Both the position numbers and the translations under genes were made by a program. Under the pieces are notes generated by a model. The model saw nothing but the letters and a program-made list of their open reading frames with translations, made no database searches and was not told the DNA's origin. A stretch of DNA of 64,000 nt from Hippasteria phrygiana (Eukaryota > Echinodermata > Asteroidea > Valvatida > Goniasteridae): NCBI GenBank assembly GCA_037893225.1, contig JAZGUH010000327.1, positions 682,001 through 746,000 of the forward strand. The letters are read 5' to 3'. Shown piece after piece: positions 1,640 to 49,700 of this stretch. Position 1 is the stretch's first letter. Each line of letters begins with the position of its first letter.

Positions 1640-1828
1640 CCAGTGTTAGTGTCAACACACACAAGTGTGTAAACACCTTCAATCGTGGACCTCCTATTGT
1701 CCCTCTTTTGTTTGTACTTTCACTTTTTCGGAAGGCCTCCCATATGTTTTGTACACGATTTTCAAACGTGGACCTTGACACAATCGTGGACCCTATAGTC
1801 CTCTTTGTTAAAGGTCCACGGTTTGAAT
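1640..1828. repeat. Dispersed repeat, 'cggaaggcctcccatatg' family
   Basis: This block contains ACACAAGTGTGTAAA, then CGGAAGGCCTCCCATATG, then AATCGTGGACC words. The same order of words recurs at about 43626-43795. Inside it, GTCCACG and CGTGGAC words face each other, so the unit is itself partly inverted. It is probably a MITE; the ends are not defined. Confidence 0.6.
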
Positions 1829-2938
1829 AGCTATGATACAAACTCATGTGCACACATACTCAGAGGTTGGACAAACTACTAACGCAATCAATTTTGATCT
1901 GCCATTATCCGCTTTTGATCAGCAATATTGCACAAACTATAGCCGTAACAAGCCATATCATCCAGACAGTTTAACAATTGTACATCCACTTTTGTCTGGA
2001 CATTTTGCAAATAATAATTTTAAAAAAGTCCAACTGTAATTTCAACCTCTGCATCATCTGGAATTCTAACTGCTGGTGCTTTGAACAAAAAGTTACATGT
2101 AGTATTACGTCGGACACCTTAAAAAAAAAAATCATTTTGTTGTCCCATCACGTATAGCCTGTGCCTAGGTATTTACAACATTTACAGGTAAATTTATTAC
2201 AGACTTTTGAGTATTTTAAATAAATCTACAGCATTGCACCTTCAAACTACTGTTTCTTATATTGCTACATTGTAGTTGGTGCAATAATGCAACTGCAAGT
2301 CCTCCAATAATGTACATTTCAGTAATTTTCAGACTAATGTCATGCTAATCAGGTGGCCCACAGAATATGATCAACACATCAATGTGTTTATGAAATAAAT
2401 TCAAACAAGACTCTGTTGCTGAAGAAATGTTTGAGTCACCCTCTGTGCGACTCATCAGTATCTTAAATCATTCATTTTCCATCGTTTCCAAAAAAGGAGT
2501 TGTTAATTTTCTTACTCCCGTATTCATAGTGGGTGTATATATGATCTTCAGTAACCAGTCGGACTTCAAATCCAGTTTGAGCTCAGTTACATGTAGTTCA
2601 GTTGAGTTGCAGATTCAGCTTGAGTTATAAGTTAAAATATTTAGTTGACAAGCACAGTATGTACAATTTCTCCATGCTAGTAAGAGGGAAATGCAAAAAG
2701 GAAACATGTACCTGCCTAAGGCTCTAACCTAAACAAAAATTAATATGAACTGTCACTCAGTGGGTTTGCTTGCATAAAGCTGTAGAAAGAACTAAAAACA
2801 ACCTGCCCAGTCATGTTGAGAACAGTTTCAGGTCACAACTAACATCACAGTAAGCACATAATTTCCAGTGTTTGACAATCAAGTAATTATATTTGTGATA
2901 TTCAACAGATTTTGTTTGTACTGTTTGTTTCTCTACAG
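1829..2938. other. No gene seen; probable intron upstream of the exon at 2939
   Basis: Short open frames occur, but none has convincing splice sites or family motifs. A pyrimidine-rich acceptor (tttgtttctctacag) closes the stretch at 2938, so at least its 3' end is probably intron. Confidence 0.5.
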
Positions 2939-4519
2939 AGATTTTCACACCAGAAGCATTTGAGCCAGCCGAAGCATATTGTGCATCATCGGAAGAGAAC
3001 CCCAAGGAAACCAGCCATGCTGTCCCTGTCCAAGCCAGTTAATGGCTTCCCAAGCTCCCTGTACAGCAAGGACTTGAAACCCAAGTTGACCAACCTACAC
3101 CTCAAGCATGGTTATACCTTCGACTCCGAGTCCTCATCAGGGAGTGGGAGTGACCTCCCTAGTTGCCCCTGGTTCAACCACCAGAGGGTGCAGACAGCTT
3201 CGCCGATCTTGGTGGAGCTGTACCCATCCGTTGCAGCCAAAACATGTAAGCAGGACACAGATGCCAGCTACATGTATCCCATAAGTCCTCTGAAGAAGAG
3301 TAAATTGACCCATAGTGGGTTTATCCCTCTGGACAGTTCCAAGGATAGAACCAAGGGCCAGAAAAACCCAGTCAAAGTTTTCTCTCCTTCCCCAGACAAA
3401 TCTCCATGGAAAATCAAAAAGCTCAGCAAGCAGCTGTTGATGCTGGCTGACTTCTCAAATAGTGAGGAAGAATTTGAACCATCTGATAAGCGTGTCATGC
3501 AGACGCGTTCCAAACAGAATTGGCAGAGTGGAGCATCACTTCGCAAATCTCAGATTCCAGGCTTACTGCGACCTCATAGAAAGGAAGATGTATCAGTTGG
3601 AGTGCCCATTCACATCAGGTTCCAAGATACCAAAAGTGGTGCTAGAAATGGGAAATCATTAGGAAGGCAAGGAAGTGACAAGGCTGAAGCTCCTAAAACT
3701 AACGGAACTGTCATTGCGGAATTTTGCCAAAAACAACGAAATATGATTGAGGCAGTTGTGGATGAGAGCTTTGTTGATGATGCCATTGTGTTCATCCGTG
3801 ACTTTGCCACTTTACACCGTGGTGCCCCAGAGGAGTACATGATGTACCTCTTAAAAGAAGTGCTGCTTGCTGACAATATTGAAGATTCCACCATCTTGAA
3901 TGCATATGAAGCCTTGATGCATATACAGCATTTGCATCCCACTGCTACCACTGGTTTGACCATCGACTGGGACTTGGTCACTACCATTGTCAAGAAGTTG
4001 GATCTTGAGACAAGATCAGAGCCTACTAATTCCCCGTGTCTAGGCCCCATTCTCGCCTTGCAGTTTATTGTAGTCATCATTGCTGATGATTTTCAAGTTG
4101 CCAGAAAAAACAACATTGGCAGGAAGTCCTATGCCCACAGCTTGCTGTCAGTAGACGTGTGCCTCGGGCATGTACGCAGTGTAATACAGTGGATATGCCG
4201 TACTGTTACCACCAAACTTAAACACAATCACACCAAAGCAGAACCCAAGCACCCTGCCCAGAGTGAAGATCGAAACGTTTGGCAATTTTTGCTACAGTTT
4301 ACCAAGGAGAGTGCAGAGCCCGAAACAGAAAAGCCCAGAGATTATTCAACACCAACTCCATGGTCAGAAGGTTACCTCACAGTGTTGCACCTCCTTGAGA
4401 AGCTGCTTCTGCTCAGCTGTGCGGTGGGCAAGAGCGACAGTGCTCTCAAGATTGCTGAGGAGTTTCTCTACCCATATCTCTATATTCCAAGCTTGGACCT
4501 GAGGAAAACATGTCTACAA
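2939..4519 (+). CDS. Unrecognised conserved-looking gene, first visible exon (527 codons)
   Basis: An open exon lies between a good acceptor (ctctacag, ending 2938) and a good donor (CAA|gtaaga at 4520). It is phase 0 at both ends. The first half (about residues 1-270 of the exon) is low-complexity, basic and serine/proline-rich with acidic patches such as SNSEEEFEPSD, which suggests a disordered nuclear protein. From about residue 275 onward it is amphipathic and leucine-rich (for example VDESFVDDAIVFIRDF, then WSEGYLTVLHLLEKLLLL), which suggests an alpha-helical repeat fold. The first coding exon may lie upstream: an in-frame ATG exists at 3017, but the acceptor argues that translation starts earlier. 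I considered the SLF2/SIMC1 (FAM178) family because of this layout, but the C-terminal exons do not match what I know of it. Existence as a coding exon is well supported; function is unknown. Confidence 0.8.
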
Positions 4520-4672
4520 GTAAGATACCACTCCCCCTCCCCCCCTCCCCCCTCCCCCCTCCCCCTTCTCCCCTTCTCCCCCTCTCCCCTTCTCCCCCTC
4601 TCCCCCTCTCCCCCTCCCCCACTCCCCTCCCCCACTCCCCTCCCCCACTCCCCTCCCCTTCCCCTCATTGTA
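4520..4672 (+). repeat. C/T-only polypyrimidine tract at the intron 5' end
   Basis: Starting within 15 bases of the donor at 4520, about 140 bases are almost pure pyrimidine on the plus strand, built from CCCCCT and CCCCTTCT words. Such homopurine-homopyrimidine tracts can form triplex (H-DNA) structures. An open frame runs through it only because it lacks A-containing stops. Confidence 0.85.
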
Positions 4673-5030
4673 TTTGGCTCACATTAACATTGTTTGTTGC
4701 AAATGTTGTGGGTTGCTGTGTTTGATTTGATTTTCCTTTTTGTTTGAGGTAGATGGTTTTGTTTGTTCGAGGTAGATGGTTTTGTTTGTTCAGATTTTGT
4801 TAGTGAGTACTGCATTTGCATGGCTGGTGCATGTATAAGTGTTCGTGTACAGGTAGTCCTGTGGGGCAGAAAACACAATAGAACAATAAGCCCCAGAGCG
4901 AAATCTTTAGAAATCTATCTTCCCCAGAGGGAAAAACGCTATGGAGTTTGAGATTTCAATAGGAACAAAGGAAAACAAAAGAAGGGGAACAAAGGTCTTC
5001 CCCCATAAGTATGTGTGTGTAAGGCTGCGT
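4673..5030. other. No feature seen; intron of the plus-strand gene
   Basis: Apart from a direct repeat of the words TTTGTTTGTTCGAGGTAGA near 4745-4790, nothing is recognisable. Confidence 0.5.
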
Positions 5031-5430
5031 GTACAGGGTCTGTAAATACTTGCGAGGACAAGAGGAAAAAGGAACTACAAAAGAACCTTTCAGTCCTCGC
5101 AAGTCATGTCTTTTGTTGAAATCGGTCCTCGCACGTAGAAATAGTGCTTAGTCTATGGGGTTGGGTTATATTAAAGGAACAATAGGAAACACAAAGCATT
5201 GTCCTCGCAAGTATTGGGAAAGTACGACTGGGTGTACGTGCACTGTATATATCTCCGAGGACAAGAGGAGAAAGGAAACACAAAGAAACCTTTCAGTCCT
5301 CGAACGTAGAGTCTTTTGTTGAAATCGGTCCTCGAACGTAAGGATACGTGCTTAGTCTATGGGGTTTGGTTATATCAAGGGAACAAAAGGAAACACAAAG
5401 CTTTGTCCTCGGACGTATTAGGGAAGTACG
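5031..5430. repeat. Tandem duplication, about 203-bp unit with GTCCTCG words
   Basis: Two diverged copies of about 200 bp lie head to tail. For example, CTTTTGTTGAAATCGGTCCT occurs at 5110 and again at 5313. Within each copy the word GTCCTCG (or its complement CGAGGAC) recurs in both orientations at the sides of short AAAGGAA blocks. The intron position and lack of coding potential suggest a repeat-derived element. Confidence 0.75.
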
Positions 5431-6059
5431 ACCATGTGTGCACACTCGTGTTTCTATTTTCCGTACTCTCTGTGTGTGTGTCTTTGTATTATTTAGTATT
5501 ATTGACTGCAAATATAATATGCATGAGTTATCCATCTTGAATGATGCACATTGTGATAAGAATTCATCTTACAAGTTTACACTTTAAACATAATGTACAT
5601 GTACATACACTGAAGCAAAAGCAGTATATAGCAGACGCATCGGCAAACAGTGTGTCAAAGAAGGGAAAGAGACTGAGACACTTCGTATTTGAATCACAAT
5701 CTCTAGCCACACAGTCATCTACGATTTGAAGATATTACTACCATTTCAGATGGGACAAATGTGACTTTTAAAATTAATACATGTAGATTTGAAAAGAACA
5801 TTAAAATAAATGTATCTGTTATATATCTTGGACCTGAAAGTATACTATATGATGTATGGTTTCTGAGATAGAATTGTTTAAAAACTTGTCCTTTTTTAAC
5901 AAGTTTGGAAAGTCCTATTACATGGAAGCAAGCTTTAAAAATCAGAAAATGTACATGACATCTGTTTAGTATTTAAAGGTCCTTACTGCAGTGTTACATG
6001 CACAAAATCCAAACGAATGAAACTGAATAAGGGCACGGCAGAAACAATCAAAGAAAGAA
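5431..6059. other. No feature seen; intron sequence
   Basis: AT-rich sequence with several ACATGTA words. No coding exon, RNA or paired repeat could be supported. Confidence 0.5.
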
Positions 6060-6300
6060 CAAAGGTGAAACCAGCAATTATATTTGTCAAACAATCCACA
6101 AGGGAAACTGACAAGGTAAATCTGAATACATTTTCAAAGTGAACAAAGAAACTGGCAGGAACGGGATTCGAACCTGCGACCTCCGGGTTACCGTACCGGG
6201 TTACCGTACCGGGTTACCGTACCGTACTGTACCGTACTGTACCGTACCGGTTTGAATCCCGCTCCTCCCAGTTTCTTTGTTCACTTTGAAAATTATATTT
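6060..6300. mobile_element. Foldback element with tRNA-like inverted ends, copy 1
   Basis: The left arm (about 6128-6185) carries TTTTCAAAGTGAACAAAGAA then a B-box-like GGGATTCGAACC. The right arm is its inverse complement, with GGTTTGAATCCC then AGTTTCTTTGTTCACTTTGA. The centre is a short tandem array of CCGGGTTACCGTA and CCGTACTGTA words. The outer flank (caatccacaagggaaactga) also occurs beside the second copy at 44850-45260. The A box seen in the second copy has been replaced by the tandem array here. Confidence 0.75.
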
Positions 6301-6518
6301 GAGCAGAAACTTTAATATTTACAGAATGAGTATATGAAAAAATAATGGTCAACTTTCAAATAAATAACTACATCACAAATGTAAGGAAATACATAGTATT
6401 CGTCAAACAATCCATAGTACTTTAACTTAAATTCAATGGTGAGGGAATTTCATGAGAATACCAGGCTCTTGATGAGTGAGCAGAGCAGGCAGTGGGCGTG
6501 GCTGGTGCGAGAGATTGT

Positions 6519-6817
6519 CAGTGTTGTAGTCAAGACCAGCACAAGACCAGCACAAGACCAGCACAAGACCAGCACAAGACCAGCACAAGACCAGCACAAG
6601 ACCAGCACAAGACCAGCACAAGACCAGCACAAGACCAGCACAAGACCAGCACAAGACCAGCACAAGACCAGCACAAGACCAGCACAAGACCAGCACAAGA
6701 CCAGCAGTGTTAATCCAAGTCTTAGCTATGCAAGTGAACTGTAACAAAAGCATTCCTTTGTCATGGTTTATACCTGGTCTTGTGCCTGGTCTTGAAATGG
6801 TCTCGACTACAACACTG
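6519..6817. mobile_element. hAT-type MITE with internal 11-bp minisatellite; 8-bp TSD gagattgt
   Basis: The ends are CAGTGTTGTAGTC and its complement GACTACAACACTG, and the 8 bp GAGATTGT lies directly on both sides (6511-6518 and 6818-6825). This is the target duplication size of hAT elements. The left arm holds about 15 tandem copies of ACAAGACCAGC; the right arm has only two diverged copies of the complement. The centre shares 'aaaagcattcctttgtcatgg' words with relatives at 20615, 21165 and 39409. Long open frames through the array are artefacts of the repeat. Confidence 0.9.
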
Positions 6818-7099
6818 GAGATTGTAGTAGACGTCGCTGTGTGCTGGGCGGTCCAGTGTTTGCCATCTATTGTGAGCACTGGACCAGTCTGGTCCATACT
6901 ATCTAAGAAGTGTACTGATACTGGTTTGCTGTACAGGCCATCTAGGAAGTGCCCCGATACCAGTCTGGTAAACGGGCTGTCAAGTCAGAGCTTTGGGCCG
7001 GCTTGGCCCAGGAGACATTGAAGGAGAACACAGCAGGATAAAGTGAACTGAAGGATAGCTCACTGCTTGATGATAGTCAAGACTGACTACCATAGCACT

Positions 7100-8687
7100 A
7101 TGGCTGCGTTCAGACACCATTTTAAATTCCCTTAAAACACTAGTTGAACTCAATTTGGTTAAAAGTTTTAGCTAAAACGGTGTCTGAACGCTTTTACAGT
7201 TGCACCGAATCGGTTTTATCTCGCCGCTAAAACGGTGATTTAGAACACCTCGGAGGGAGGGTTTAGCTAAAACCAGAACAGTTTTATCTTTTAAAACGAT
7301 GTCTAAACGGTTTTAGCTAAAACGCTTTCTGTTTTAGCTAGCGCGGTTGACCTGGTGTTACGTAACACCTTTTGTGGCGCGCCTTTTGCTGTGTAAACAA
7401 TCGCAGTTGTCAGTGCATGTCCTATATATACACAGCATGCACACATGCACGCGACACGCCAAAATACGCAGCGCTAGCGTGGGCAATCTTTGCATTTTTT
7501 TAAGTGGTTGTTGATTTTTTTTCTTCAAAACTGATTACCATTGTACCATGGTTTTTGGAAGCGACTGTTTGCTGAATCGCTATAATTATTCGAACAAGAA
7601 TCTCTCGTGACAGCGCCATGTTGTTGACAGTAATGCATGTAAGTTTGGGCCAAAAAGAAATAATGTTCGACATAAAATTTTTCCCCACGGAAAACATGCA
7701 AAATCTAAATCAGACCTCATCTTTGCGGCGCTATCAACAGAAAAACAGTTGAAAACATTGAGGAGCGTACGCTGAAAAAACCTAGCATTTCCATCGAAAT
7801 AGTCGCTAAATATGTTTGTTTTTTTCTTAGTTCCATTTGTGTATTTTGTTTACGTGTAAGATCAACATTTTGCAGCTTAATAATCGTTTCGGAATAAGGC
7901 CTACATCATGTGCTTTCCATAATTTGACGAGTCACGTAATCGCTGCTGTGATCACTGGTAAACAAAATTACCACTGCATTCCCAATCGCCCGCGAAGTAC
8001 CAGGTCATTCATAAAAAAGACGCATGCGCGTACAAGTACTGGAACCGTTTGGTGTCGCGACACTACCGCATTAAACAGGGGGTAGCTTAAAAGTTGGAAC
8101 ATTGCAAAATTTATAGCAACAACATTTACAGGAATATTTTGAATATTTTTCTGTAATTTTTCCGATCTTTTGCCGATCCACATGTCTGAACATTAAAAGA
8201 TAATGTCATTCAAACCATGCCCATTGCCAACGTGCTAGCATGCATTATGCAGTAGCCCTGTTCACGACTTCGCTTTACATTTGTATAAAATATCGCGTGA
8301 AGGGGTCGTAGGAACTGGAAAATAGGACCAACTTGCAAATCAAATGACGGTACAGTCTTTCAGTCCGCACGTGCTCAACCACAAGGGAATACCCAAGATG
8401 AGAAATAGCTTGCTCAAGTTTCCACAAAACTCCCATATGCGTACGTACGTACGCATCTCATAGACACAATTTTATGATGTTCACACGAACTAGCGCGCGC
8501 TTTATGTAAATGAGCGGAAGTTCTACGTGACCTCAAAACGGAGATAAAACCACTTCAAGTTGAACGCGCTACACTTAAAACGATGTCTGAACCCTTGGTG
8601 CGTTTTAATTTTACGACCGGCCACCCATGGTGAGCGACCGTTTTAACTTTTACCGTTTTAACTAAAACGATGTCTGAACGTAGCCAT
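7100..8687. mobile_element. 1.6-kb DNA transposon, non-autonomous, ends ATGGCTRCGTTCAGACA
   Basis: The left end ATGGCTGCGTTCAGACACC is matched by the complement of 8667-8687. Just inside both ends are several copies of GTTTTAGCTAAAACG followed by TGTCTGAACG, which act as subterminal repeats. No transposase motif could be read in the interior. A PIF/Harbinger or similar origin is possible, but no target duplication is clear. Confidence 0.75.
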
Positions 8688-8843
8688 GGTTTGGCTGATA
8701 AAGTGGATGGAGCGACACCCTCAAAGCAATGAAGGAGAATTAGACAAAGCCTCCAACTGACCCATGGTGGTAGTGTAGAGGGTGTGTACATGTAGCAACA
8801 TGGTTCGAGCATAGGTGGCGGAACAGGAGGAGCCAGGGGAGCA

Positions 8844-8982
8844 TTTCCCCCACCCCCCCCCCACTTGGGAGGGAATTCCCCCATCCCCCATCCCCCCCCC
8901 ATCCCCCCCCCATCCCCCCCATCCCCACCCCATCCCCAACCCCCCCCCCCCCCCCCCCCCTCATCCCCCCCATCCCCCCCAC
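8844..8982 (+). repeat. C-rich simple repeat (CCCCCCAT)n
   Basis: A run of CCCCCCAT and CCCCACCC words includes about 20 uninterrupted C residues near 8941-8960. The complementary strand is G-rich and could form quadruplex structures. Confidence 0.9.
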
Positions 8983-9918
8983 TTTAGGCAGTTCCGCACA
9001 AGAAAAACATACAAGGCCGGTACCAGTGCTGCTTTTTGGCCCCCACTTTCAAAAGTGTTCCGCCGTTTTTTGGTTCAAGCCCAACCTTATTTGCTCATCA
9101 AGCCCAGCATTATTTGCCCATCAAGCCCCAACAACAATACACTGGGTGGCGATAACTGCCATAAGGTGCATTGTACCAATAAAAGACATTTTGTCTACTG
9201 CATACTCTACATGCATGTGGCCCAAATTACAATTTCTGTAAAATCCCCATTTGTAACAGCATTCACATCAATTTTTGCAAATGGGCCTTTCCACAGTAAA
9301 GGGGTACAAAAGTGTGACATGGGATTAGCAAATGAAGCAGGATAATAATATCCAGTTGTTTGTCCTCTTTTCCACTTGTACATTCCCACCCCATCGTTGA
9401 GGATTGTGCTCGCCAAGAATTTAAAACTTTCCAGGCAAATTTTACACGATATGTATGCTCAGAATGCTACGTATGTAACATGGACAGGAAGTATGTTAAT
9501 ATTGATAGAAAGTTATAATTACAATAAATGTCTTCATCAAATATTGTGTCTTTTTATTCTTATCCCTACAGCATTGTTACCTGTAAAAACCAAGACAATC
9601 TACTGTATATTTCAGATGTTACAGGTTATTATGTACAGAATATTACGTACGTAACGTGGACAGAAATTTCTGTTCATGTTACGTACGTTACCTATAAGTG
9701 TCTTAAAGACCAACAAAATTGTGTTTATTGTGGCTCTCAGCACTCCTAAATGGGTTATTAATATGAATAAGATGACATTTGGGTAAATTCATGCACATGA
9801 TAATTACGGTAGTGTCCTGTCAATTTGTAGTAAAAATTCTGTCTTTGTTACATATGTAATTATTTACGACGACCCCTGTAATTTCTAAAGTACAGAAAAA
9901 GTCCTCTATATTTGTTCA
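8983..9918. other. No gene seen; intron sequence with ACGTACGTAAC words
   Basis: Between 9460 and 9700 the words ACGTAACATGGACAG and TACGTACGTAACGTGGACAG recur in both orientations, with two ATGTTAC-type inverted pieces. This may be a decayed MITE. Nothing else is recognisable. Confidence 0.45.
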
Positions 9919-10145
9919 TTAACCACTTGGGCACGGTATTTTTACGGGAGACGTCGGGGTGTTGCAGTGGTTCTGGCAGCCAAATCGAACCGCTACAATG
10001 TGTTTGTGCAGCTATTAAGCATGACATAAACAATAATCCAACAATGGATTGAAACTGCACAAACGGCGGCCAGTGGCGTCATCCGGCCTGGTGGCACATT
10101 TTTTTTTTGGACGCCATATGGCGTCATCCATACGCAAGGGGTTAA
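9919..10145. mobile_element. piggyBac-like MITE, copy 1 (TTAA both ends)
   Basis: The element is bounded by TTAA on both sides, with ends AACCACTTGGGCACGG and CGCAAGGGGTTAA. The interior contains AATCCAACAATGGATTGAAA and a GCGTCATCCGGCCTGG block shared by all family members. TTAA duplication is typical of piggyBac; Kolobok elements also use it. Confidence 0.8.
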
Positions 10146-10958
10146 GGCCTCGGGAATGTACAGGAAACCAAACAAAATATCTTGTTTTGCTGTACCCTTC
10201 AGTGTCCCCCCCCCCCCCCACCCAAATCCAAAATTTGCAGTCAATTGTACCCCACTAGTGTGGAAATGCCCAAATACATGTAGTCATGTACCATCAGCCA
10301 GATTCTTAGCATGAAAGAAATATTGAAGCTACATATGTAGCAACATTTCTCCAAATACAACTGTACATGTACATGTACCTGCCCAATTTGAAGGTTTAAA
10401 GCAACTTTTGTCAATAAGAACTTTTTGCAATTTGTCCATAAAGGACCTTATAGTATTGGGCTGACAATAAGTGAAGTTTCCAACTAATACTTACATGTAG
10501 GTTTTAATTGGGAAAAAAAACATTTGTTCTTGTACAAAAGCAAAATAATATAAAAATCAAAATGACATAAATGATGTCAAGTTTCAAGCTGAGTGGCTAG
10601 GCACATGTGACGCACATTAACAAAGCAGGCCGTATACCCATTTGACTTAGTCTCCACAAAACAGCGTTTAATTTGTAATGCTTTCATTTTCTATTATGCA
10701 TGTAATAATCTATCCAATCGGTGAATTGCTCTTGTAATTTTTGATGCAGGTTTACGAAAACTAATGAATTTTTCAAAATGAAATGTCAAACCAGGTAATT
10801 CAAGAAAACTTATAAATATTCAGGAGATCAAATGAGATCAGTTCCATTGTGTCCCTCTGCTGGGCACAGTATGATCTCATCCTGTAGAAGAAGACATTTA
10901 CTCCCTCCTGAAACCCAGTACATGTACAATGAACAATGAATGAGCTACATGTACGCTT
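10146..10958. other. No gene seen; intron sequence
   Basis: It contains a C run at 10207-10220 and a TACATGTACATGTACC tract at 10363-10380. No supported exon, RNA or paired repeat was found. Confidence 0.5.
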
Positions 10959-11232
10959 GCTGGGCCGATATTATGGAACAAACTTCCTCAAAATATTCGT
11001 GACTGCTCCACCCTGCAAGAGTTCAAATGTGCTCTGAAGACCCACCTCTTTCAAATTGCATTCCAGTAGCTCATTTATTTGATTGTCAAGCTAATTGTGT
11101 TATTGTAATGTCCATGTTTTGATTATTTGTATCTTTGTTCCCTTTGTTTTTGTTCTGTGCGCCTTGAGCATCTCATTAAGGTGGATAATGGCGCATTATA
11201 AATTGCCTATATTATTATTATTATTATTATTG
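10959..11232 (+). mobile_element. 3' end of a non-LTR retrotransposon (LINE), 5' truncated
   Basis: A 36-codon open stretch ending with TAG at 11067-11069 reads AGPILWNKLPQNIRDC, then STLQEFKCALKTHLFQIAFQ. The pattern W-N-x-L-P, 10-12 residues, FK..LK.HLF is the typical C-terminus of CR1/L2-like LINE reverse transcriptase ORFs. It is followed by a 3' UTR with GCGCCTTGAGC and GGCGCATTATAAAT, and a tail of ATT repeats (11209-11231). The rest of the element is missing, as expected for 5'-truncated insertions. Confidence 0.85.
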
Positions 11233-11533
11233 CTCTAAATGATGAAAACAACAATGTTAACTTGAAGCTTTTGTCGTGTTATTGTGCACACATTACATTG
11301 CCACAAAAAACATGCCTTCTCTAGACTCTATACAGTTGTACATTCACCATTATACAACACCTGAATAAATTCCAGCCATCCGATTGGTGGAGAGTCGATC
11401 ACGTGCATTGAATTATTCGACCCATCACACGACGCGAACCCGCACCGCCCAAAACGTTCCATCACATGGTTCTATCAAACGGTGCGCGCGCATTGATAGA
11501 ACCAAAATAATTTTTTCTAATTTCACGGTCACT

Positions 11534-11779
11534 ATGGTGGCGCTACAACAGGGCTGTCATTCACACAATGTGGCGGCCGAGTTTCCCGAACTGCCGCGGT
11601 TTGTTCTCCTAACAGACGACGAAATATTGGAACTCGTAGGCGATGCTGACGCTCCAAATACAAAGAGACAAATCAAATACGCAGTGAAACGATTAGATGA
11701 ATTTGCAAGACACGCAGGAACAACAATTGAAGCTTTAACTGACTCGAAACATTTTTGTCGCCGTTTTATGCGGGACTGA
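11534..11779 (+). CDS. Short ORF of mobile-element type, possibly Crypton/KIAA1958-like N-terminus
   Basis: An 81-codon frame starts with ATG at 11534 and stops at 11777-11779. Its core reads LTDDEILELVGDADAPNTKR followed by QIKYAVKRLDEFARHAGTTI. I associate this NTKR-x-IK-x-AV pattern with N-terminal regions of Crypton-type tyrosine recombinase proteins in invertebrates; that is recall, not an alignment. No recombinase domain follows, and the frame stops just before a donor-like aag|gtaaac. It is best read as a fragment of a transposon gene. The upstream 150 bp is GC-rich, with restriction-site-like palindromes but no recognisable promoter. Confidence 0.4.
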   Translation: MVALQQGCHSHNVAAEFPELPRFVLLTDDEILELVGDADAPNTKRQIKYAVKRLDEFARHAGTTIEALTDSKHFCRRFMRD

Positions 11780-29780: not shown

Positions 29781-29786
29781 TTGGCT

Positions 29787-29950
29787 GTTTTGGAAACTTT
29801 TCCAAAACAGCCCTTGTTTTCGTTAAGATTTTTTTTTTTTCCTTTTCAGACTTTTTGGCTGTTTCGGAAGTTTTCCGAAACAGCCTTTGTTTTCGTTAAG
29901 ATTTTTTTTGTTTTCTTTTTGGCTGTTTCGGAACTTTTCCGAAACAGCCC
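29787..29950. repeat. Three tandem hairpins GGCTGTTTCGGAA..TTCCGAAACAGCC
   Basis: The unit 'GGCTGTTTcGGAAsTTTTCC' plus GAAACAGCC folds into a stem of about 12 bp. It occurs three times (about 29787, 29858 and 29920), each followed by CTTGTTTTCGTTAAGATTTTT. The CGAAACAGCC part is also found next to the 3' hairpins of the neighbouring Helitron-like units. Confidence 0.85.
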
Positions 29951-29960
29951 TTGTTTTCGT

Positions 29961-29989
<29 letters not shown>

Positions 29990-30001
<12 letters not shown>

Positions 30002-31973
30002 TCTTTTTCAGACTTTTTGCCCATAGACTTTGTACACGTTTTCGTTCTGCCAGGCACTTTGGCTACTTTTATGCAGCCGATTGCCTTTAAACTTAACAGA
30101 CACTTAGACCAACTGCTCAGGATGTATGCCGAACTTTTACGTCATGATGACGTCATCACGTGATTTTTTATGAATTTTTGAATTTTGAAAATCGTAACAT
30201 TCATTAAATTATATCTAGCGAACAAAACAAGATATTTTAAAAATTCTTTTTCTTATAGCTTTGGTATGTCTCAAAGATATGCCCTAAATTGCGAAAATTC
30301 TGTGACGTCATGATGACGTCATCAAAAATGTGTTTTTTTGTTAACGCATGTAAGGGTCAATCCGATTACAAAAATGTATATATTGAATTTTCCTGTACCC
30401 AATTCCAAAATTTTATGATCGTGGCTCACTCAAGTAAGAAATGACAGCCATTTCAAAATTTAGACCAAATTCAATATAACACAAAGGAATTCTGGGACGG
30501 GCAGATAACCGTGGCTATTATGTGCTTGATGTTTATAAAAGGGGTTGATTTCTAGTCTTTTTTCAAGTCGCTGAATTTTTGAAGTATTAAAATCGTAACA
30601 TTCTTTTCAATATATCTAGCGAACAAAACAAGATATTTTCAAAATTCTTTTTGTTATAGCTTTGGTATGTCTCAAAGATATGCCCTAAAAGGCGAAAATT
30701 GTGTGACGTCATGATGACGTCATCAACAAATCTTTTTTTTTTAAACGCATGTCAGGATCAATCCGATTACAAAAATGTATTCGTTGAATTTTCCTGTACC
30801 TAATTCCAAAATTTCATGATCGTGGCTCACTCAAGTGTGAAATAGGAGCCATTTCAAAATTTAGACCAAATTCAATATAACACAAAGGAATTCTGGGAAG
30901 GGCTGATAACCATGGGTATTATGTGCTTGCTGTTTATAAAACGGGTTGATTTCTAGTCTTTTTTCAAGTCGCTAAATTTTTGAAGTTTTAGAATCGTAAC
31001 ATTCTTTTCAATATATCTAGCGAACAAAACAAGATATTTTCAAAATTCTTTTTGTTATAGCTTTGGTATGTCTCAAAGATATGCCCTAAAAAGCGCAAAT
31101 TGTGTGACGTCATGATGACGTCATGAAAAAAATTCTTTTTTCAAGTCGCTAGAATATTGCACATAGCATTTGTAAACTTTTTCTTTCTTACCGGCCACTT
31201 TGGCTACTTTTAAACTTGGCAGACACTTACACCAACTGCTCACAATGTGTGCCGAACTTTTACGTCATGATGACGTCATCACATGTCACGTGACGTCATC
31301 TTAAAGGGGCATTTTTCGAAGCCATATATCTACAAAAGTACAAGTCCGATTAAGTTGGAACGTAATATCTAGGTATGCCACCGGGTGTTATAGATGAACA
31401 TTGACATGACGTTATGATCAAGTCATAACATGTCACGTGGTGTCATCTTAAAGGGGCACTCGCTAGATTATTGCCCATAGCATTTGTAAACGTTTTCTTT
31501 CTTACCGGCCAGTTTGGCTACTTTTAAACTTGGCAGACACTTACCCCAACTGCTCAGAATGTGTGCCTAACTTTTACGTCATGATGACGTCATTACATGT
31601 CACGTGACGTCATCTTAAAGGGGCATTTTTCGAAGCCATATATCTACAAATGTACAAGTCCGATTCAGTTGAAACACACTATTTAGGTATGCCACCCGGT
31701 GTCATAGATGAAAATTGACATGACGTTATGATGAAGTCATTACATGTTATGTGATGTCATCTTAAAGGGGCATTCGCTAGGCTATTTCCCATAGCATTTG
31801 TACACGATTCCTTTTTTAAACCAATCCTTCACACATCCAATAACAACATCTTCATCCCTCCGTCATTGTTAACAAACAAACAACTTTAAATATTGCATAC
31901 ACATTTGACATCCAAACTAACAATAAAAAAATTAGAAACAGCCCTGTGTTTGTCCACAAACACTTGCCTCTAG
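29990..31973 (+). mobile_element. Helitron-like non-autonomous unit 1, ends CTAG at 31970-31973
   Basis: The unit begins after a T run with TTTTTCAGACTTTTTGCCCA and contains repeated blocks of about 400 bp (AATATATCTAGCGAACAAAA, TATGTCTCAAAGATATGCCC, TGACGTCATGATGACGTCAT). It ends with ACAGCCCTGTGTTTGTCCAC then AAACACTTGCCTCTAG. GTGTTTG-TCCA-CAAACAC is a 7-bp-stem hairpin shortly before CTAG, the arrangement seen at Helitron 3' ends. No Rep or helicase coding sequence is visible. Confidence 0.65.
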
Positions 31974-34028
31974 TTTTCTTTTTTTTTTTCTTTTTCAGCC
32001 AAATGCCCATAGCATTTGTACACGTTTTCTTTCTTACCGGCACTTTGGCTACTTTTATGCTGCCGATTGGCTTTAAACTTGGCAGACACTTGGACTAACT
32101 GCTCAGAATGTATGCCGAACATTTACGTCATAATGACGTCATCACGTGATTTTTTATGAATTTTTGAAATTTGAAAATCGTAAAATTCTTTTCAATATAT
32201 CTAGCGAACAAAACAAGATATTTTCGAAATTCTTTTTGTTAAAGCTTTGGTATGTCTCAAAGATATGCTCTAAAAAGCGAAAATTGTGTGACGTCATGAT
32301 GACGTCATCAAAACTGTGTTTTTTTTTAAACGCATGTAAGGGTTAATCCGATTACAAAAATGTATATATTGAATTTTCCTGTACCTAATTCCAAAATTTC
32401 ATGATCGTGGCTCACTCAAGTAAGAAATAGGAGCCATTTCAAAATTTAGACCAAATTCAATATAACACAAAGGAATTCTGGGAAGGGCTGATAACCATGG
32501 CTTAAATGTGCATGCTGTTTATAAAAAGGGGTTGATTTCTGGTCTTTTTTCAAGTCGCTGAATTTTTGAAGTATTAAAACCGTAACATTCTTTTCACTAT
32601 ATCTAGCGAGCAAAACAAGATATTTTCAAAATTCTTTTTGTTATAGATTTGGTATGTCTCAAAGATATGCCCTAAAAGGCGAAAATTGTGTGACGTCATG
32701 ATGACGTCATCAACAATATTTTTTTTTAAAACGCATGTAAGGGTCAATCTGATTACAAAAATGTATACATTGAATTTTCCTGTACCTAATTCCAAAATTT
32801 CATGATCGTGGCTCACTCAAGTAAGAAATAGGAGCCATTTCAAAATTTAGACCAAATTCAATATAACACAAAGGAATTCTGGGAAGGGCTGATAACCATG
32901 GCTTAAATGTGCATGCTGTTTATAAAAAGGGTTGATTTGTAGTCTTTTTTCAAGTCGCTAAATTATATAAAATTTCAATCATAACATTCTTTTCAATATA
33001 TCTAGCGAACAAAACAAGATATTTTCAAAATGCTTTTTGTTATAGCTTTGGTATGTCTCAAAGATATGCCCTAAAAAGCGAAAATTGTGTGACGTCATGA
33101 TGACGTCATAACAAAAATATTTTTTTCAAGTCGCTAGAATATTGCCCATAGCATTTGTAAACGTTTTCTTTCTTACCGGCCACTTTGGCTACTTTTAAAC
33201 TTGGCAGACACTTACCCCAACTGCTCACAATGTGTGCCGAACGTTTACGTCATGATGACGTCATCACATGTCACGTGACGTCATCTTAAAGGGGCATTTT
33301 TCGAAGCCATATATAAACAAAAGTACAAGTCCGATTAAGTTGAAAAATAATACCTAGGTAGCCCAGTAGGTTTTTAGATGAAATTTGACTTGACATTATG
33401 ATGACGTCATCACATGTCCTTAACGTCATTTTAAAGGGGCAGTTTTTGAAGCCATATATAAACAAAAGTACAAGTCCGATTAAGTAGAAAAATAATACCT
33501 AGGTAGCCCAGTAGGTTTTTAGATGAAATTTGACTTGACATTATGATGACGTCATCACATGTCCTTAACGTCATTTTAAAGGGACAGTTTTTGGAGCCAT
33601 ATATAAACAAAAGTATAAGTCCGATTAAGTTGAAAAGTAATATCTAGGTAGCCCAGTACATATAGGTTTATATATGATAAGTGACTTGACATTATGATGA
33701 CGTCATCACATGTCACGTGACGTCATCTTAAAGGGGCTGTTTATGAAGCCATATATAAACAAAATTATAAGTCCGATTAAGTTGAAAAGTAATATCTAGG
33801 TAGGTCAGCAAGTTTATAGATGAACATTTATGTGACGTTATGATGACGTCATCACATGTTACTACTACAAACAACTTTAATTAATTTCAAAATTACCAAA
33901 GAAAACTGGCAGCAGCACGATTGTTTGACAAACTTAAATTATTGTATTCACATTTCACATCCAAACTAAAAAAAACAAAAACGAAACAGCCCTGTGTTTG
34001 TCCACAAACACCAACCTCATGCCTCTAG
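31974..34028 (+). mobile_element. Helitron-like non-autonomous unit 2, ends CTAG at 34025-34028
   Basis: It opens with TTTTCTTTTTTTTTTTCTTT and CATAGCATTTGTACACGTTT, carries the same internal blocks, plus a stretch where a roughly 150-bp sub-block (AAGCCATATATAAACAAAAG, then GTACAAGTCCGATTAAGT) is repeated several times at 33310-33830. It ends with the hairpin GTGTTTGTCCACAAACAC, then CAACCTCATGCCTCTAG. The next unit starts immediately. Confidence 0.65.
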
Positions 34029-35449
34029 TTTCTTTTTTTTTTTCCTTTTCAGACTTTTGCCCATAGCATTTGTACACGTTTTCTTTTTACCGGCACTTTG
34101 GCCACTTTTATGCAGCCGATTGCCTTTAAACTTGGCACACACTTAGACCAACTGCCCAGAATGTGTGCCGAACTTTTACGTCATGATGACGTCATCACGT
34201 GATTTTTAATGAATTTTTGAATTTTGAAAACCGTAACATTCTTTTCAATATATCTAGCGAACAAAACAAGATATTTTCAAAATTCTTTTTGTTATAGCTC
34301 AAAGATATGCCCTAAAAAGCGAAATTTGTGTGACGTCATGATGACGTCATCAAAAATATGTTTTTTTTTAAACGCATGTAAGGGTCAATCCGATTACAAA
34401 AATGTATACATTGAATTTTTCTGTACCCAATTCCAAAATTTCATGATCGTGGCTCACTCAAGTAAGAAATGACAGCCATTTCAAAATTTAGACCAAATTC
34501 AATATAACACAAAGGAATTCTGGGACGGGCAGATAACCATGGCTATTATGTGCTTGCTGTTTATAAAAGGGGTTGATTTCTAGTCTTTTTTCAAGTCGCT
34601 AAATTATACAAAAATTTCAATCGTAACATTCTTTTCAATATATCTAGCGAACAAAACAAGATATTTTCAAAATGCTTTTTGTTATAGCTTTGGTATGTCT
34701 CAAAGATATGCCCTAAAAAGCGAAAATTTTGTGACGTCATGATGACGTCATAAAACAAATATTTGTTTCAAGTCGCTAGAATATTGCCCATAGCATTTGT
34801 AAACGTTTTCTTTCTTACCGGCCACTTTGGCTACTTTTAAACTTGGCAGACACTTATCCCAACTGCTCACAATGTGTGCCGAACGTTTACGTCATGATGA
34901 CGTCATCACGTCACGTGACGTCATCTTAAAGGGGCATTTTTCGAAGCCATATATAAACAAAAGTACAAGTCCGATTAAGTTGAAAAATAATACCTATGTA
35001 GCCCAGTAGGTTTATAGATGAAATTTGACTTGACATTATGAAGCCATATATAAACAAAAGTACAAGTCCGATTAAGTTGTTTTATAGGTTTATAGATGAA
35101 AATTTACTTGACATTATGATGACGTCATCACATGTCACGTGACGTCATCTTAAAGGGGCAGTTTTTGAAGCCATATATAAACAAAAGTACAAGTCCGATT
35201 AAGTTGAAAAGTTATATCTAGGTAGGTCAGCAAGTTTATAGATGAACATTTATGTGACGTTATGATGACGTCATCACATGTTACTACTACAAACAGCTTT
35301 AATTAATTTCAAAATTAACAAAGAAAACTGGCAGCAGCGCGATTGTTTGACAAACTTAAATTATTGTATTCACATTTCACATCCAAACTAAAAAACCAAA
35401 AACGAAACAGCCCTGTGTTTGTCCACAAACACCAACCTCATGCCTCTAG
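34029..35449 (+). mobile_element. Helitron-like non-autonomous unit 3, ends CTAG at 35446-35449
   Basis: Same architecture as unit 2 but shorter. Its last roughly 200 bp (TACTACAAACAGCTTTAATT through the hairpin and CTAG) is nearly identical to the end of unit 2, so a shared terminal module is reused. Confidence 0.65.
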
Positions 35450-36893
35450 TTCCCATAGCATTTGTACACGTTTTCTTTCTTACTGGCACTTTGGCTACTT
35501 TGGTGCACCCGATTGCCTTTAAACTTGGCAGACACTTAGACCAACTGCTCAGAATGTGTCCCGAACTTTTTGGTCATGATGACGTCATCACGTGATTTTT
35601 TATGAATTTTTGAAATTTTAAAATCGTTAAATTCTTTTCAATATATCTAGCGAACAAAACAAGATATTTTCAAAATTCTTTTTGTTATAGCTTTGGTATG
35701 TCTCAAAGATATGCCCTAAAAGGGAGAAAATGTGTGACGTCATGATGACATCATCAAAAATGTGCTTTTTTAAAACACATATAAGGATAGGTCCGATCGT
35801 CATGAAAATTGGTGGGTAGGTAGATACTGGCACTAGGATGCAAAATCCAAAGTGACGTCATGATGACGTCATCATGTGATTTGTTATGAATTTTTGAAAT
35901 TTTGAAAATCGTAACATTCTTTTAAATATATCTGGCAAACAAAACAAGATATTTTCAAAATTCTTTTTGTTATAGCTTTGGTAGGTCTCAAAGATATGCC
36001 CTAAAAAGGAAAAAAATGTGTGACGTCATCAAAAATGTGCTTTTTTAAAACACATAAGGATAGGTCCGATCGTCATGAAAATTGGTGGGTAGGTAGATAC
36101 TGGCACTAGGATGCAAAATCCAAAGTGACGTCATGATGACGTCATCACGTGATTTGTTATGAATTTTTGAAATTTTGAAATCGTAACATTCTTTTAAATA
36201 TATCTCGCAAACAAAACAAGATATTTTCAAAATTCTTTTTGATACAGCTTTTGGTATGTCTCAAAGATATGCCCTAAAAGGCGAAAATTGTGTGACGTCA
36301 TAATGACGTCATCAATTGTTTTTTTTTACGCATGTAAGGGTCGGTCCGATTAAAAAAATGTATACATTGAATTTTTCTCTACCTAATTCAACAATTTCGT
36401 GATCGTGGCTCACTCAAGTATTAAGAAATAACAGGCATCTGAAAATTGTGACCAAATTTAATATAACACAAAGGAATTCTGGGAAGGACAGAAACCATGG
36501 CTTTCAAGTGGCATGCTGTCTATAAAGAGTTGATCTCTAGTCTTTTTTTCAAGTCGTTAGACAAGTCGTAGGCAGACACTTACACCAACTGCTCAGAATG
36601 TGCCCCGAACTTTTACGTCATGATGACGTCATCACATGTCATGTGACGTCATCTTAAAGGTGCATTTTTTGAAGCTATATATCTACAAAAGTACAAGTCA
36701 GATTAAGTTAAAACGTGGTATTTAGTTATGCCAGCATGTGTTAGATGAAAATTGACTTGACGTCATGATGACGTCATCGGCTAATTTTCTATGATTTTTT
36801 TCATTTTTGAAATTTCATTTAAATCACATAATTTTACACAAAAAAAACAAAACAGCCCTGTGTTTGTCCACAAACACTGCACCACATGTCTAG
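35450..36893 (+). mobile_element. Helitron-like non-autonomous unit 4, ends CTAG at 36890-36893
   Basis: It begins directly with TTCCCATAGCATTTGTACAC and contains two near-identical blocks (TAGGTCCGATCGTCATGAAA at about 35788 and 36060). Its 3' end is the hairpin at 36860-36877, 12 nt, then CTAG followed by T. Downstream unique sequence starts here, so this is the right boundary of the array. Confidence 0.65.
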
Positions 36894-39408: not shown

Positions 39409-39818
39409 CAGAGATGTAGTCGAGGCCATCACAAGGCCACACAAGACCTGCAAGGCCAGCGCAAGGCCAGCACAAGGTCATTAAGACCTTCAGTCTTAAT
39501 TCAAGTCTCAAGCTATTCAAATGAACTGTAATAAAAGCATTACTTTGTCATGGTTTATGCATGTTACAAGCTGGCCTTGTGCCTGGCCTTGTGCCTGGCC
39601 TTGTGCCTGGCCTTGTGCCTGGCCTTGTGCCTGGCCTTGTGCCTGGCCTTGTGCCTGGCCTTGTGCCTGGCCTTGTGCCTGGCCTTGTGCCTGGCCTTGT
39701 GCCTGGCCTTGTGCCTGGCCTTGTGCCTGGCCTTGTGCCTGGCCTTGTGCCTGGCCTTGTGCCTGGCCTTGTGCCTGGCCTTGTGCCTGGCCTTGAAATG
39801 GTTTGGACTACAACACTG
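39409..39818. mobile_element. hAT-type MITE family member with 12-bp GGCCTTGTGCCT minisatellite
   Basis: The left end CAGAGATGTAGTCGAGGCC and right end GGACTACAACACTG belong to the CAGTGTTGTAGTC family. The core GTAATAAAAGCATTACTTTG is conserved. The right arm has about 19 tandem copies of CTTGTGCCTGGC, while the left arm has only short related words. The 8-bp flanks do not match (tcggacac, atatttaa), so one end has been rearranged. It starts about 30 bp upstream of exon 5's acceptor, in intron 4. Confidence 0.85.
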
Positions 39819-48112: not shown

Positions 48113-48228
48113 AACCCTAACCCTCCAGGGTATTTTGGCTAGAAACCCTGCCAGACGCATCAGATTGCATACTTTGTCACATTGACTTGTGTGCAGAGTG
48201 CAGCAAGGTCAAAGGTTGTCGGTCACAT

Positions 48229-48660
48229 CGCCCTCAACCACATCGCCCTCAACCACATCGCCCTCAACCACATCGCCCTCAACCACATCGCCCTCAACCA
48301 CATCGCCCTCAACCACATCGCCCTCAACCACATCGCCCTCAACCACATCGCCCTCAACCACATCGCCCTCAACCACATCGCCCTCAACCACATCGCCCTC
48401 AACCACATCGCCCTCAACCACATCGCCCTCAACCACATCGCCCTCAACCACATCGCCCTCAACCACATCGCCCTCAACCACATCGCCCAAACGCCACTTC
48501 GCCCAAACGCCACTTCGCCCAAACGCCACTTCGCCCAAACGCCACTTCGCCCAAACGCCACTTCGCCCAAACGCCACTTCGCCCAAACGCCACTTCGCCC
48601 AAAAACCACTTCGCCCAATTACTACTTCGCCCATAAACCACTTCGCCCAAAAACCATTTA
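48229..48660 (+). repeat. 15-bp minisatellites: (CACATCGCCCTCAAC)n then (CACTTCGCCCAAACG)n
   Basis: Two related 15-bp units follow one another without spacers, and the switch occurs at about 48486. The last four units are degenerate (AAAAACCACTTCGCCC, ATTACTACTTCGCCC). Because 15 is a multiple of three, every frame is open, which explains the long but meaningless reading frames here. Confidence 0.95.
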
Positions 48661-49484
48661 CCAGTGTATTTATTAACTGAATGTTACTGAGACTTTTTGA
48701 GAAAAATGTCACCGCCACTGCCCTGGAAGAGTTTTAAGCCAAAAAAGATAGGGCCTATCCGTGTTTTTCGAAAGTACAAAATGACTTTGTGTTTTGCCCA
48801 ACTTTACTAGTTCTTTTTCGCGTTTTTTTTTCGCCCTTCCCGTACGTACGGTATTAAAAGCAGGAATCACGACAATACTGGAATAAGTTTAAACCTTCTT
48901 TATTGTATTATGCAGATTTAATATATTTGTGTGGGTAATGTACTTGTATGCATGGAGGTACCGGGAATCCATGTGTCCGTATTGCGTTATGCGTAAAAAT
49001 GGAATTACACGGAAAGCAACGGATCACGCGAAACGGATTTAACGCAATGCGCATTGCGGATATGATCGCAATACGTTTGGCCGGCGGGCATTCAGTTTCA
49101 ATTTTTAAGCACCCACGATTTTGTTCCTAATTTTCGTTTTTGTTTATTAGGGACATTCTATTTCGTTTTGATGGTGCATTCAAGACTTTATTTGCGTTCT
49201 TATATTGAGTTTTGTGACATCCTTTTTGTGACCATGCTTTTCTTTTCTTATTACTAGTATGGGCATGGAGGAAGAATCCTCCATGACCATTGTATGGGCA
49301 ATTATTTTCATCAATTTGTCATTCAAATTATTACGATTTTTAAAATTGATATATTTTCCAAGAGTTTTTATTTTTATTTCGTAACATTTATAATGTAACA
49401 TCTTAACTGATATAAGGGATGATGTATGTATTTAAAACGAACTGATGAAATGAAAATAGGGCATACGGATCGGGCATGGGTTTT

Positions 49485-49700
49485 GGGCGAAGTGGCGTTT
49501 GGGCGAAGGGGTAATTGGGCGAAGTGGCGTTTGGGCGAAGTGGCGTTTGGGCGAAGTGGCGTTTGGGCGAAGTGGCGTTTGGGCGAAGTGGCGTTTGGGC
49601 GAAGTGGCGTTTGGGCGAAGTGGCGTTTGGGCGAAGTGGCGTTTGGGCGAAGTGGCGTTTGGGCGAAGTGGCGTTTGGGCGAAGTGGCGTTTGGGTGAAG
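49485..49700 (-). repeat. Inverse 15-bp minisatellite, right arm
   Basis: About 13 copies of GGGCGAAGTGGCGTTT-type units are the complement of the second unit of the left arm. Only one trace (GGTTGAGGGCGAAGTG at 49728-49743) of the first unit type remains here, so the arms have changed copy number independently. Confidence 0.95.

What the first reader, a model, noticed from the sequence alone, without database searches (positions are those of the whole stretch)
29787..36893. Tandem array of Helitron-like units packed with CRE-type palindromes
Four successive units end with the same signature: ACAGCCCTGTGTTTGTCCAC, a 7-bp hairpin GTGTTTG/CAAACAC, then 12-18 nt and CTAG (31970, 34025, 35446, 36890). 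Each next unit starts directly after. Helitrons end in a hairpin about 10-12 nt before CTRR, and Helentron-related non-autonomous elements are known to form head-to-tail arrays. Here the internal content is almost entirely repeated blocks with paired TGACGTCA sites, which I do not know to be described.
Basis: partly seen in the sequence, partly recalled or inferred. Interest (0 to 1): 0.8.

Follow-up and report, generated by a model that had tools for sequence, protein, structure and literature searches.

The report
Nested stack of rolling-circle transposons
What looks like a row of repeated units in a sea star genome is mostly a Russian-doll stack of small rolling-circle jumping elements, each inserted into the T-rich stretch of an older copy and each packed with a short palindrome of a kind that gene-control proteins often bind.

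Summary
In detail: four identical 3' modules (hairpin, CTAG) and 48 TGACGTCA palindromes lie at 29783-36893. The elements are Helitron-like but of the Helentron/HINE branch: 5' hairpin, matching 3' subterminal repeat, 3' hairpin, T-tract, central repeats, TT targets. They are not simply head to tail. Three 5' hairpins sit together at the left, and each following 'unit' starts inside an interrupted T-tract. The inner element (29921-31973) is 95.8% identical end to end with a single copy elsewhere; the outermost is split into 29783-29856 and 35450-36893 (joined: 95.6% end to end with another single copy). The own genome has 5775 exact 3' modules; of 100 listed, 86 have a neighbour within 10 kb and none on the opposite strand. 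At 10 multi-copy loci all 24 possible 5'/3' pairs match by type as nested brackets (25 of 10000 shuffles reach that). One 5' module is missing here, and five loci, this one included, have unequal 5'/3' counts not explained by cut ends. CRE palindromes are mostly well conserved; their function is untested. No autonomous partner was linked.

The parts
29783..29856 (+). Left fragment of the outermost a-type HINE: 5' hairpin GGCTGTTTTGGAAACTTTTCCAAAACAGCC, CTTGTTTTCGTTAAGA, T-tract and CAGACTTTTT, where the next element entered
   Evidence: joined with 35450-36893 it aligns end to end, 95.6%, with the unnested copy in L013. In a head-only pairing control unit 2 scored slightly higher than unit 4
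29857..29920 (+). Left fragment of a b-type HINE: 5' hairpin GGCTGTTTCGGAAGTTTTCCGAAACAGCC plus interrupted T-tract
   Evidence: type by the CCTTTG continuation; partner is unit 2 or unit 3
29921..31973 (+). Innermost, uninterrupted c-type HINE (2053 bp): 5' hairpin, 33-nt T-run, central repeats, 3' subTIR, hairpin, CTAG
   Evidence: 95.8% identical end to end with the unnested element in L022 (2045 bp), 12 gaps; T-run
31974..34028 (+). Right fragment (unit 2): T-tract remnant, central repeats, b-type 3' end
   Evidence: the own 5' module of unit 2 or unit 3 is missing
34029..35449 (+). Right fragment (unit 3): T-tract remnant, central repeats, b-type 3' end
   Evidence: module 2 + unit 3 aligns end to end with an intact b element but at only 78.5%
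35450..36893 (+). Right fragment (unit 4) of the outermost a-type HINE; begins at TTCCCATAG with no T-tract, ends in an a-type 3' module
31936..31973 (+). 3' module of the inner element: AAACAGCC, hairpin GTGTTTG-tcca-CAAACAC, CTAG, then TT
33984..34028 (+). 3' module, b type (tail CAACCTCATGCCT-CTAG)
35405..35449 (+). 3' module, b type (tail CAACCTCATGCCT-CTAG)
36850..36893 (+). 3' module, a type (subTIR CAAAACAGCC, tail TGCACCACATGT-CTAG), then host TTTT
30148..36776 (.). 48 TGACGTCA (CRE-type) palindromes, with 11 pairs TGACGTCATGATGACGTCA, in three block types

Best explanation
29783-36893 is a nested stack of non-autonomous Helentron-type elements (HINEs) in a sea star genome. Shown: each element runs from a 12-14 bp 5' hairpin through a T-tract and CRE-bearing central repeats to a 3' subterminal repeat, a 7-bp hairpin and CTAG; later elements lie inside the T-tract of earlier ones, in the same orientation, without target duplication beyond T's. 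Inferred: a Helentron Rep/helicase mobilises them by rolling-circle transposition into TT on one strand, so their own T-tract is a preferred landing pad, and 5' ends pile up on the left while right halves line up like a tandem array. Unequal 5' and 3' counts are inferred to come from recombination between piled 5' modules or tails, or from composite transposition. The CRE palindromes are inferred to be kept for a host bZIP factor; that is the weakest step.
For: Anatomy: stems of 13-14 bp in 8 of the 9 distinct 5' modules of the 24 tokenised loci and 12 bp in the ninth, with compensatory changes at stem positions 9 and 11; the three window hairpins fold at z -5.7 to -8.3. Targets: of 18 loci whose tokens begin with a 5' and end with a 3' module, TT stands on the left in 17 and on the right in 16; two of the 18 (L020, L033) lie in T-tracts of other elements. 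Pairing: 10 of 10 one-5'/one-3' loci agree in type (L020 later proved to hold a nested family-d element); 24 of 24 possible nested type pairs at 10 multi-copy loci (25 of 10000 shuffles reach it), last-in-first-out 22 of 24 (12 of 10000), first-in-first-out 12 of 24 (7678 of 10000). Paralogous empty sites: 7 of 10 joined hosts align end to end with an intact element at 95.6-99.6%. L020 reads 5a 5d 3d 3a, the inner family d having different ends. 86 of 100 listed 3' modules have a neighbour within 10 kb, 0 on the opposite strand. A pile of five 5' modules stands at the left edge of the 16-member C7 cluster.
Against: 5' and 3' counts are equal at only 2 of 10 multi-copy loci (L020, L027). Three of the other eight (L024, L033, L034) are cut by the fetched stretch; L023, L026, L028, L035 and the window are not. 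In the window one b 5' module is missing, module 2 + unit 3 reaches only 78.5%, module 2 + unit 2 does not reach the 3' end, and one L024 a-type host aligned only in part. In the head-only control on 11 left remnants, two had their predicted partner outside the stretch; of the other nine, seven scored best with a predicted right remnant (for window module 2 and L023 5b#2 the prediction is not unique), one tied, and window module 1 preferred unit 2 to unit 4. Among a-type 3' ends 1 of 21, and among c-type 4 of 14, lack the expected CAAAAC or CGAAAC subTIR. Types were defined after looking at the loci; L023, L024 and L025 share outer flanks and are not independent. No autonomous partner with these ends was found.
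Confidence: 0.87

Rival explanations
1. Head-to-tail concatemers: rolling-circle replication ran past the 3' terminator and laid down tandem copies, a mechanism Thomas 2014 mentions for clustered Helitrons, or an aberrant circular template was copied repeatedly.
For: Thomas 2014 section 15. Plant arrays with many 5' and one 3' end are attributed to loss of the 3' terminator from a circular template (review passages). Read-through would explain loci such as L026 (5a 3a 3a 3a).
Against: Concatemers should read 5-3-5-3 or repeat one subtype. At the loci read, 5' modules pile up and types close in last-in-first-out order, different families are stacked, and remnants meet inside the T-tract.
Confidence: 0.08
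2. Ordinary satellite: units multiplied by unequal crossing-over of an internal 1.4-2 kb repeat.
For: Units 1-3 are about 87-92% alike over 0.8-1.4 kb alignments, and block-level tandem repeats of 145, 314 and 401 bp exist inside the elements. Local unequal exchange probably changes the number of 5' modules and blocks.
Against: Neighbouring units belong to different terminal types. The outer unit completes the distant left 5' module to a full element. Single copies with clean ends are scattered at TT sites.
Confidence: 0.04
3. CRE palindromes are passengers: neutral repeat motifs or hairpin-forming palindromes without any bZIP role.
For: No binding or expression data. In ssDNA the pair could form a hairpin. 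The oyster HINE paper discusses central repeats as captured satellites or as products of the element's own sequence. In the R block CRE columns vary 4.0% against 6.4% elsewhere, a small difference, and other 8-mers are as conserved.
Against: CRE 8-mers rank 11/144, 21/394, 21/394, 12/138 and 39/138 for conservation in three blocks over 45-88 distinct copies. In H and S blocks the left half of the pair is mostly altered while one intact CRE stays. Family d, with other ends, carries 22 in 4.4 kb.
Confidence: 0.5

Closest known systems
HINEs / DINE-1 (non-autonomous Helentrons), Thomas 2014, PMC4067079
   Same: Palindromic 5' subTIR near the end, matching 3' subTIR (there about 38-60 bp from the end; here 38-45 nt), 3' palindrome, T-rich/TT targets, no TSD, tandem repeats inside (passages plus sections 6 and 15 read)
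   Different: Here the end is CTAG, as in Helitrons and the proto-Helentron; clusters there are put down to termination bypass or neighbouring insertion, here to nesting in the own T-tract
Cg_HINE elements of the oyster, PMC7492417
   Same: 5' subTIR plus complementary IR, microsatellite, central satellite-like repeats, 3' subTIR, palindrome; T-rich targets (section 4 and first part of section 10 read)
   Different: Microsatellite there is mostly of 4-nt motifs; stacks in the own T-tract and CRE motifs are not described in what I read. A review (PMC12628747, passages) mentions 'shuffled' oyster loci with Helitron pieces inserted in other elements
Self-inserted FoHeli Helitrons of Fusarium, PMC5148889
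   Same: Self-insertion proposed to give nested or composite elements with several short 5' termini; a Metarhizium case read as possible insertion into another Helitron's 5' end twice (passages)
   Different: There a few cases, several with one 3' end; here stacks that keep both halves, several families, thousands of copies
TE dimers by insertion-site preference (McGurk and Barbash 2018)
   Same: Site preference makes TE arrays that can seed satellites (known only through review passages)
   Different: There repeated insertion at one genomic site; here insertion within the element's own T-tract
Helitrons carrying heat shock elements in Caenorhabditis, PMC6927752
   Same: Rolling-circle transposon with up to more than 100 copies of one transcription-factor site (passages)
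   Different: HSE in Helitrons with ChIP evidence; here CRE-type sites, no binding data

Membership tests
HINE (non-autonomous Helentron) | Palindromic 5' subTIR within a few nt of the 5' end | tested here: met
   13-14 bp stems in 8 of 9 distinct modules, 12 in one; directly after TT at 17 of 18 insertions
HINE (non-autonomous Helentron) | 3' subTIR complementary to the 5' one, about 38-60 bp from the 3' end | tested here: met
   CAAAAC at 20 of 21 a-type, CGAAAC at 13 of 13 b-type and 10 of 14 c-type ends; 38-45 nt from the end in 47 of 48 modules, the 48th (in L025) lacks CTAG and was dropped
HINE (non-autonomous Helentron) | 3' palindrome 8-35 bp from the end | tested here: met
   GTGTTTG/CAAACAC, 10-17 nt from its end to the end of CTAG in the same 47
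HINE (non-autonomous Helentron) | TT target, no target duplication | tested here: met
   empty sites are paralogous (interiors of other copies), not allelic
HINE (non-autonomous Helentron) | Shares ends with an autonomous Helentron | tested here: inconclusive
   two near-identical 20-kb stretches around one giant Rep frame lack the ends; the other Rep loci were not read, and the far ends of that element were not reached
Canonical Helitron | 5' TC, 3' CTRR, insertion between A and T | tested here: not met
   3' CTAG present, but the 5' side reads (T)nGGCTG and flanks are TT...TT
Head-to-tail Helitron concatemer | Each unit has its own 5' end directly after the previous 3' end | tested here: not met
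   in the window 0 of 3 internal 3' ends is followed by a 5' module; elsewhere it occurs, e.g. in L023, L024 and L033
bZIP/CRE enhancer array | Bound by CREB/ATF proteins in the host | not testable with these tools
   sequence motif only

The most novel reading that the evidence does not exclude
Several HINE families of this sea star carry a built-in landing pad (the T-tract after the 5' hairpin) that makes them prefer each other as targets, so they grow as self-limiting stacks instead of hitting genes, and they keep dense CRE arrays because binding of an ATF/CREB-type factor opens the element in the germ line or recruits the transposase complex to existing copies.
Probability: 0.2. Interest if true: 0.75.

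Novelty: new variant of a known kind. Interest (0 to 1): 0.52.

Why it matters
It shows in sequence how a satellite-like array can be built by repeated self-insertion of rolling-circle elements, with subtype-marked ends that let many insertions be matched to their host copy. This separates nesting from termination bypass, a standing explanation for Helitron clusters. It also puts very many CRE-type palindromes into one animal genome, a testable case of transposon-borne regulatory sites.

Tried and rejected
Viral contigs: 0 matches for a 22-base piece of the 3' module and for the CRE pair. Phage records: none. Pfam on 6 window ORFs: one weak match, below its cut-off. Canonical Helitron and plain head-to-tail array: rejected on the 5' hairpins, TT flanks and bracket order. 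Autonomous partner: PF14214 gives 150 scored matches of 164 candidates. The C503 and C12 stretches are near-identical over 20 kb, so their ends could not be found by comparison. A 4-kb downstream query is still repeated at its far end. The CRE-window comparison is biased, because windows were chosen by their core, and only its family-d count is used. L036 (left of a two-member group on C1 that precedes a 20-member cluster): I had looked for a pile of 5' modules and found none in the 4.6 kb; instead there is a family-d 3' end inside an a-type T-tract. Not done because the machine did not answer: genome-wide counts of 5' modules and of left and right junctions, and the further downstream query. 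Not tried: an allelic empty site for the window. An earlier count said more than 130 Rep frames of 2000-3600 aa; a hand count gives about 110 of 150.
Full report
What was checked. The array holds 48 of the window's 49 TGACGTCA; shuffles give at most 2. No part of the array recurs elsewhere in the window by blastn at E 1e-3, apart from a T-run match. The host looks like a sea star: the ORF at 2876-4687 has three protein hits, in Patiria, Acanthaster and Asterias, at 45-59% identity (only the 7996 candidates sharing most words were scored).

Anatomy. The left edge has three hairpins, at 29783-29812, 29857-29885 and 29921-29949, folding at -14.1 to -15.3 kcal/mol as DNA with none of 200 shuffles as good. 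Each is followed by YTTGTTTTCGTTAAGA and a T-tract. Each 3' end has AAACAGCC, complementary to the 5' stem, then the 7-bp hairpin and CTAG. The 3' hairpin alone is weak against shuffles (z -2.3 and -0.8 for the two modules folded). This is the HINE layout of Thomas 2014 and of the oyster Cg_HINEs.

Nested, not tandem. After each of the three internal 3' ends the sequence resumes in or just after a T-tract and leads to CCCATAGCATTTG, the start of the central repeats, without a 5' hairpin. Unit 4 starts directly at CCCATAG, and module 1 is the left remnant that already contains a T-tract and CAGACTTTTT. Joined, module 1 and unit 4 align over their whole length with the unnested element in L013 at 95.6%. 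The inner element is 95.8% identical end to end with the unnested L022.

Genome-wide. The own assembly has 2948 + 2827 exact 3' modules; the reversed control has 0. Among the 100 places listed (contigs C1-C12, in contig order) 86 have a neighbour within 10 kb, against 11.5% expected by chance, and none has a neighbour within 10 kb on the opposite strand. I read 23 further stretches for tokens (L009-L028, L033-L035), 24 with the window: 40 5' modules and 48 3' modules of types a, b and c. The first 14 were chosen as apparent singletons and the rest as clusters, so they are not a random sample. Nine are simple single elements and agree in 5'/3' type; L020, counted as single, holds a nested family-d element. 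L010, L011 and L016 show only a 3' module of this family. L009 has two 5' modules and one 3'. L025 has four 3' ends and no 5' module in the stretch. Ten loci have at least two 3' ends and a 5' module: 24 of 24 possible nested type pairs (the possible number being the smaller of the 5' and 3' counts), against a shuffle mean of 20.0 (25 of 10000 reach 24). Strict last-in-first-out gives 22 of 24 (12 of 10000 shuffles), first-in-first-out 12 of 24, no better than shuffled.

Empty sites. Of ten hosts rebuilt by joining left and right remnants, chosen by the bracket parse, seven align end to end with intact elements at 95.6-99.6%, one end to end at 78.5%, and two only in part. Intact b elements read AAGA-T13-C-T10. 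Outside the window the seven b left remnants read AAGA-T10 or T11, and four right remnants (L023, L024 twice, L035) read TTTT-C-T10: a gain of one or two T's and no other duplication. In a head-only control with wrong partners, of 11 left remnants two had their predicted partner outside the stretch; of nine, seven scored best with a predicted right remnant (not a unique prediction for two of them), one tied (L024 5b#4) and one did not (window module 1 preferred unit 2). The left remnant is only about 55-90 nt, so type and junction carry this test, not the long right part.

Stacks across families. L020 reads 5a 5d 3d 3a, with d having stem GGCTTTTCCG and 3' end CGGAAAAGCC plus another palindrome. 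Three further 5' modules with stem AGCTTTTCCGCA stand before it, and a T-rich stretch leading to CCCATAAAC follows. The left edge of the 16-member C7 cluster is a pile of four c modules and a fifth of another family.

What does not fit. Counts of 5' and 3' ends are equal at 2 of 10 multi-copy loci. Three others are cut by the stretch; five, the window included, are truly unequal, in both directions. Piled 5' modules are short direct repeats, about 55-80 bp apart, and could be lost or gained by unequal exchange. Composite transposition from an inner 5' to an outer 3' end, or the reverse, along lines proposed for Fusarium, would also do it. I cannot tell these apart.

CRE palindromes. Density is 6.6 per kb in elements against 0.46 in flanks, where some flanks hold other elements. 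In the window copies, columns of intact CREs vary 0% against 14% elsewhere in block H, 2.5% against 9.2% in S, and 4.0% against 6.4% in R. Over more loci the CRE 8-mers rank 11 of 144, 21 of 394 twice, and 12 and 39 of 138. The extended GATGACGTCATC resembles, from memory, the preferred site of ATF/JDP2-type bZIP proteins; a paper search for that string listed 14 papers, seen only as a listing. Function is open.

Autonomous partner. PF14214 finds 150 scored matches; by hand count about 110 lie in open frames of 2000 aa or more. The one read (3159 aa) has, by eye and from memory, OTU-protease, Rep, helicase and C-terminal endonuclease motifs. The 20-kb stretches read around it lack the present ends, and the element goes on beyond the stretch queried.

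Print. Searches for Helentron/HINE tandem repeats, nested or tandem Helitrons, sea star Helitrons, Helitron plus cAMP response element, and nested DINE-1 showed, in the listings and in the passages I read, no description of such stacks or of CRE-dense HINEs. I read only the named parts of five papers, and only open-licence papers are held, so this is weak evidence of novelty.

Noticed in passing
G000 (own genome), e.g. L029-L030 joined 2246-11722: About 110 of 150 PF14214 matches (hand count) lie in open frames of 2000-3600 aa with near-identical scores, suggesting recent Helentron activity; the one read has a run of lysine-rich repeats of about 18 aa.
   Followed up: partly
G000:C1:170189 and C2:1913277: Two of the three PF14214 matches listed on contigs C1-C12 lie in 36-39 kb gaps between neighbouring same-strand groups of the HINE 3' module, on the opposite strand to the modules.
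   Followed up: no
L023 versus L024/L025: L023 and L024 share the outer left flank, and L023 and L025 nearly the same outer right flank, but the nests between differ: apparently one duplicated site at different stages of stack growth.
   Followed up: partly
L016:7552: A further HINE-like 3' end (CGGAAAAGCC, then a hairpin CTATGT...ACATAG, CTAG) directly before a T-tract remnant leading to CCCATAGC: yet another family in the stacks.
   Followed up: no
window 6531-6706, 39571-39795, 48224-48651, 49482-49700: Perfect or nearly perfect minisatellites with 11-, 12-, 15- and 16-bp units, several giving open frames by repetition only.
   Followed up: no
L030 query 1600-5600, query positions 1313-2787: In the C299, C225 and C612 copies a 1.5-kb segment downstream of the Helentron frame is repeated in tandem three to four times.
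   Followed up: no
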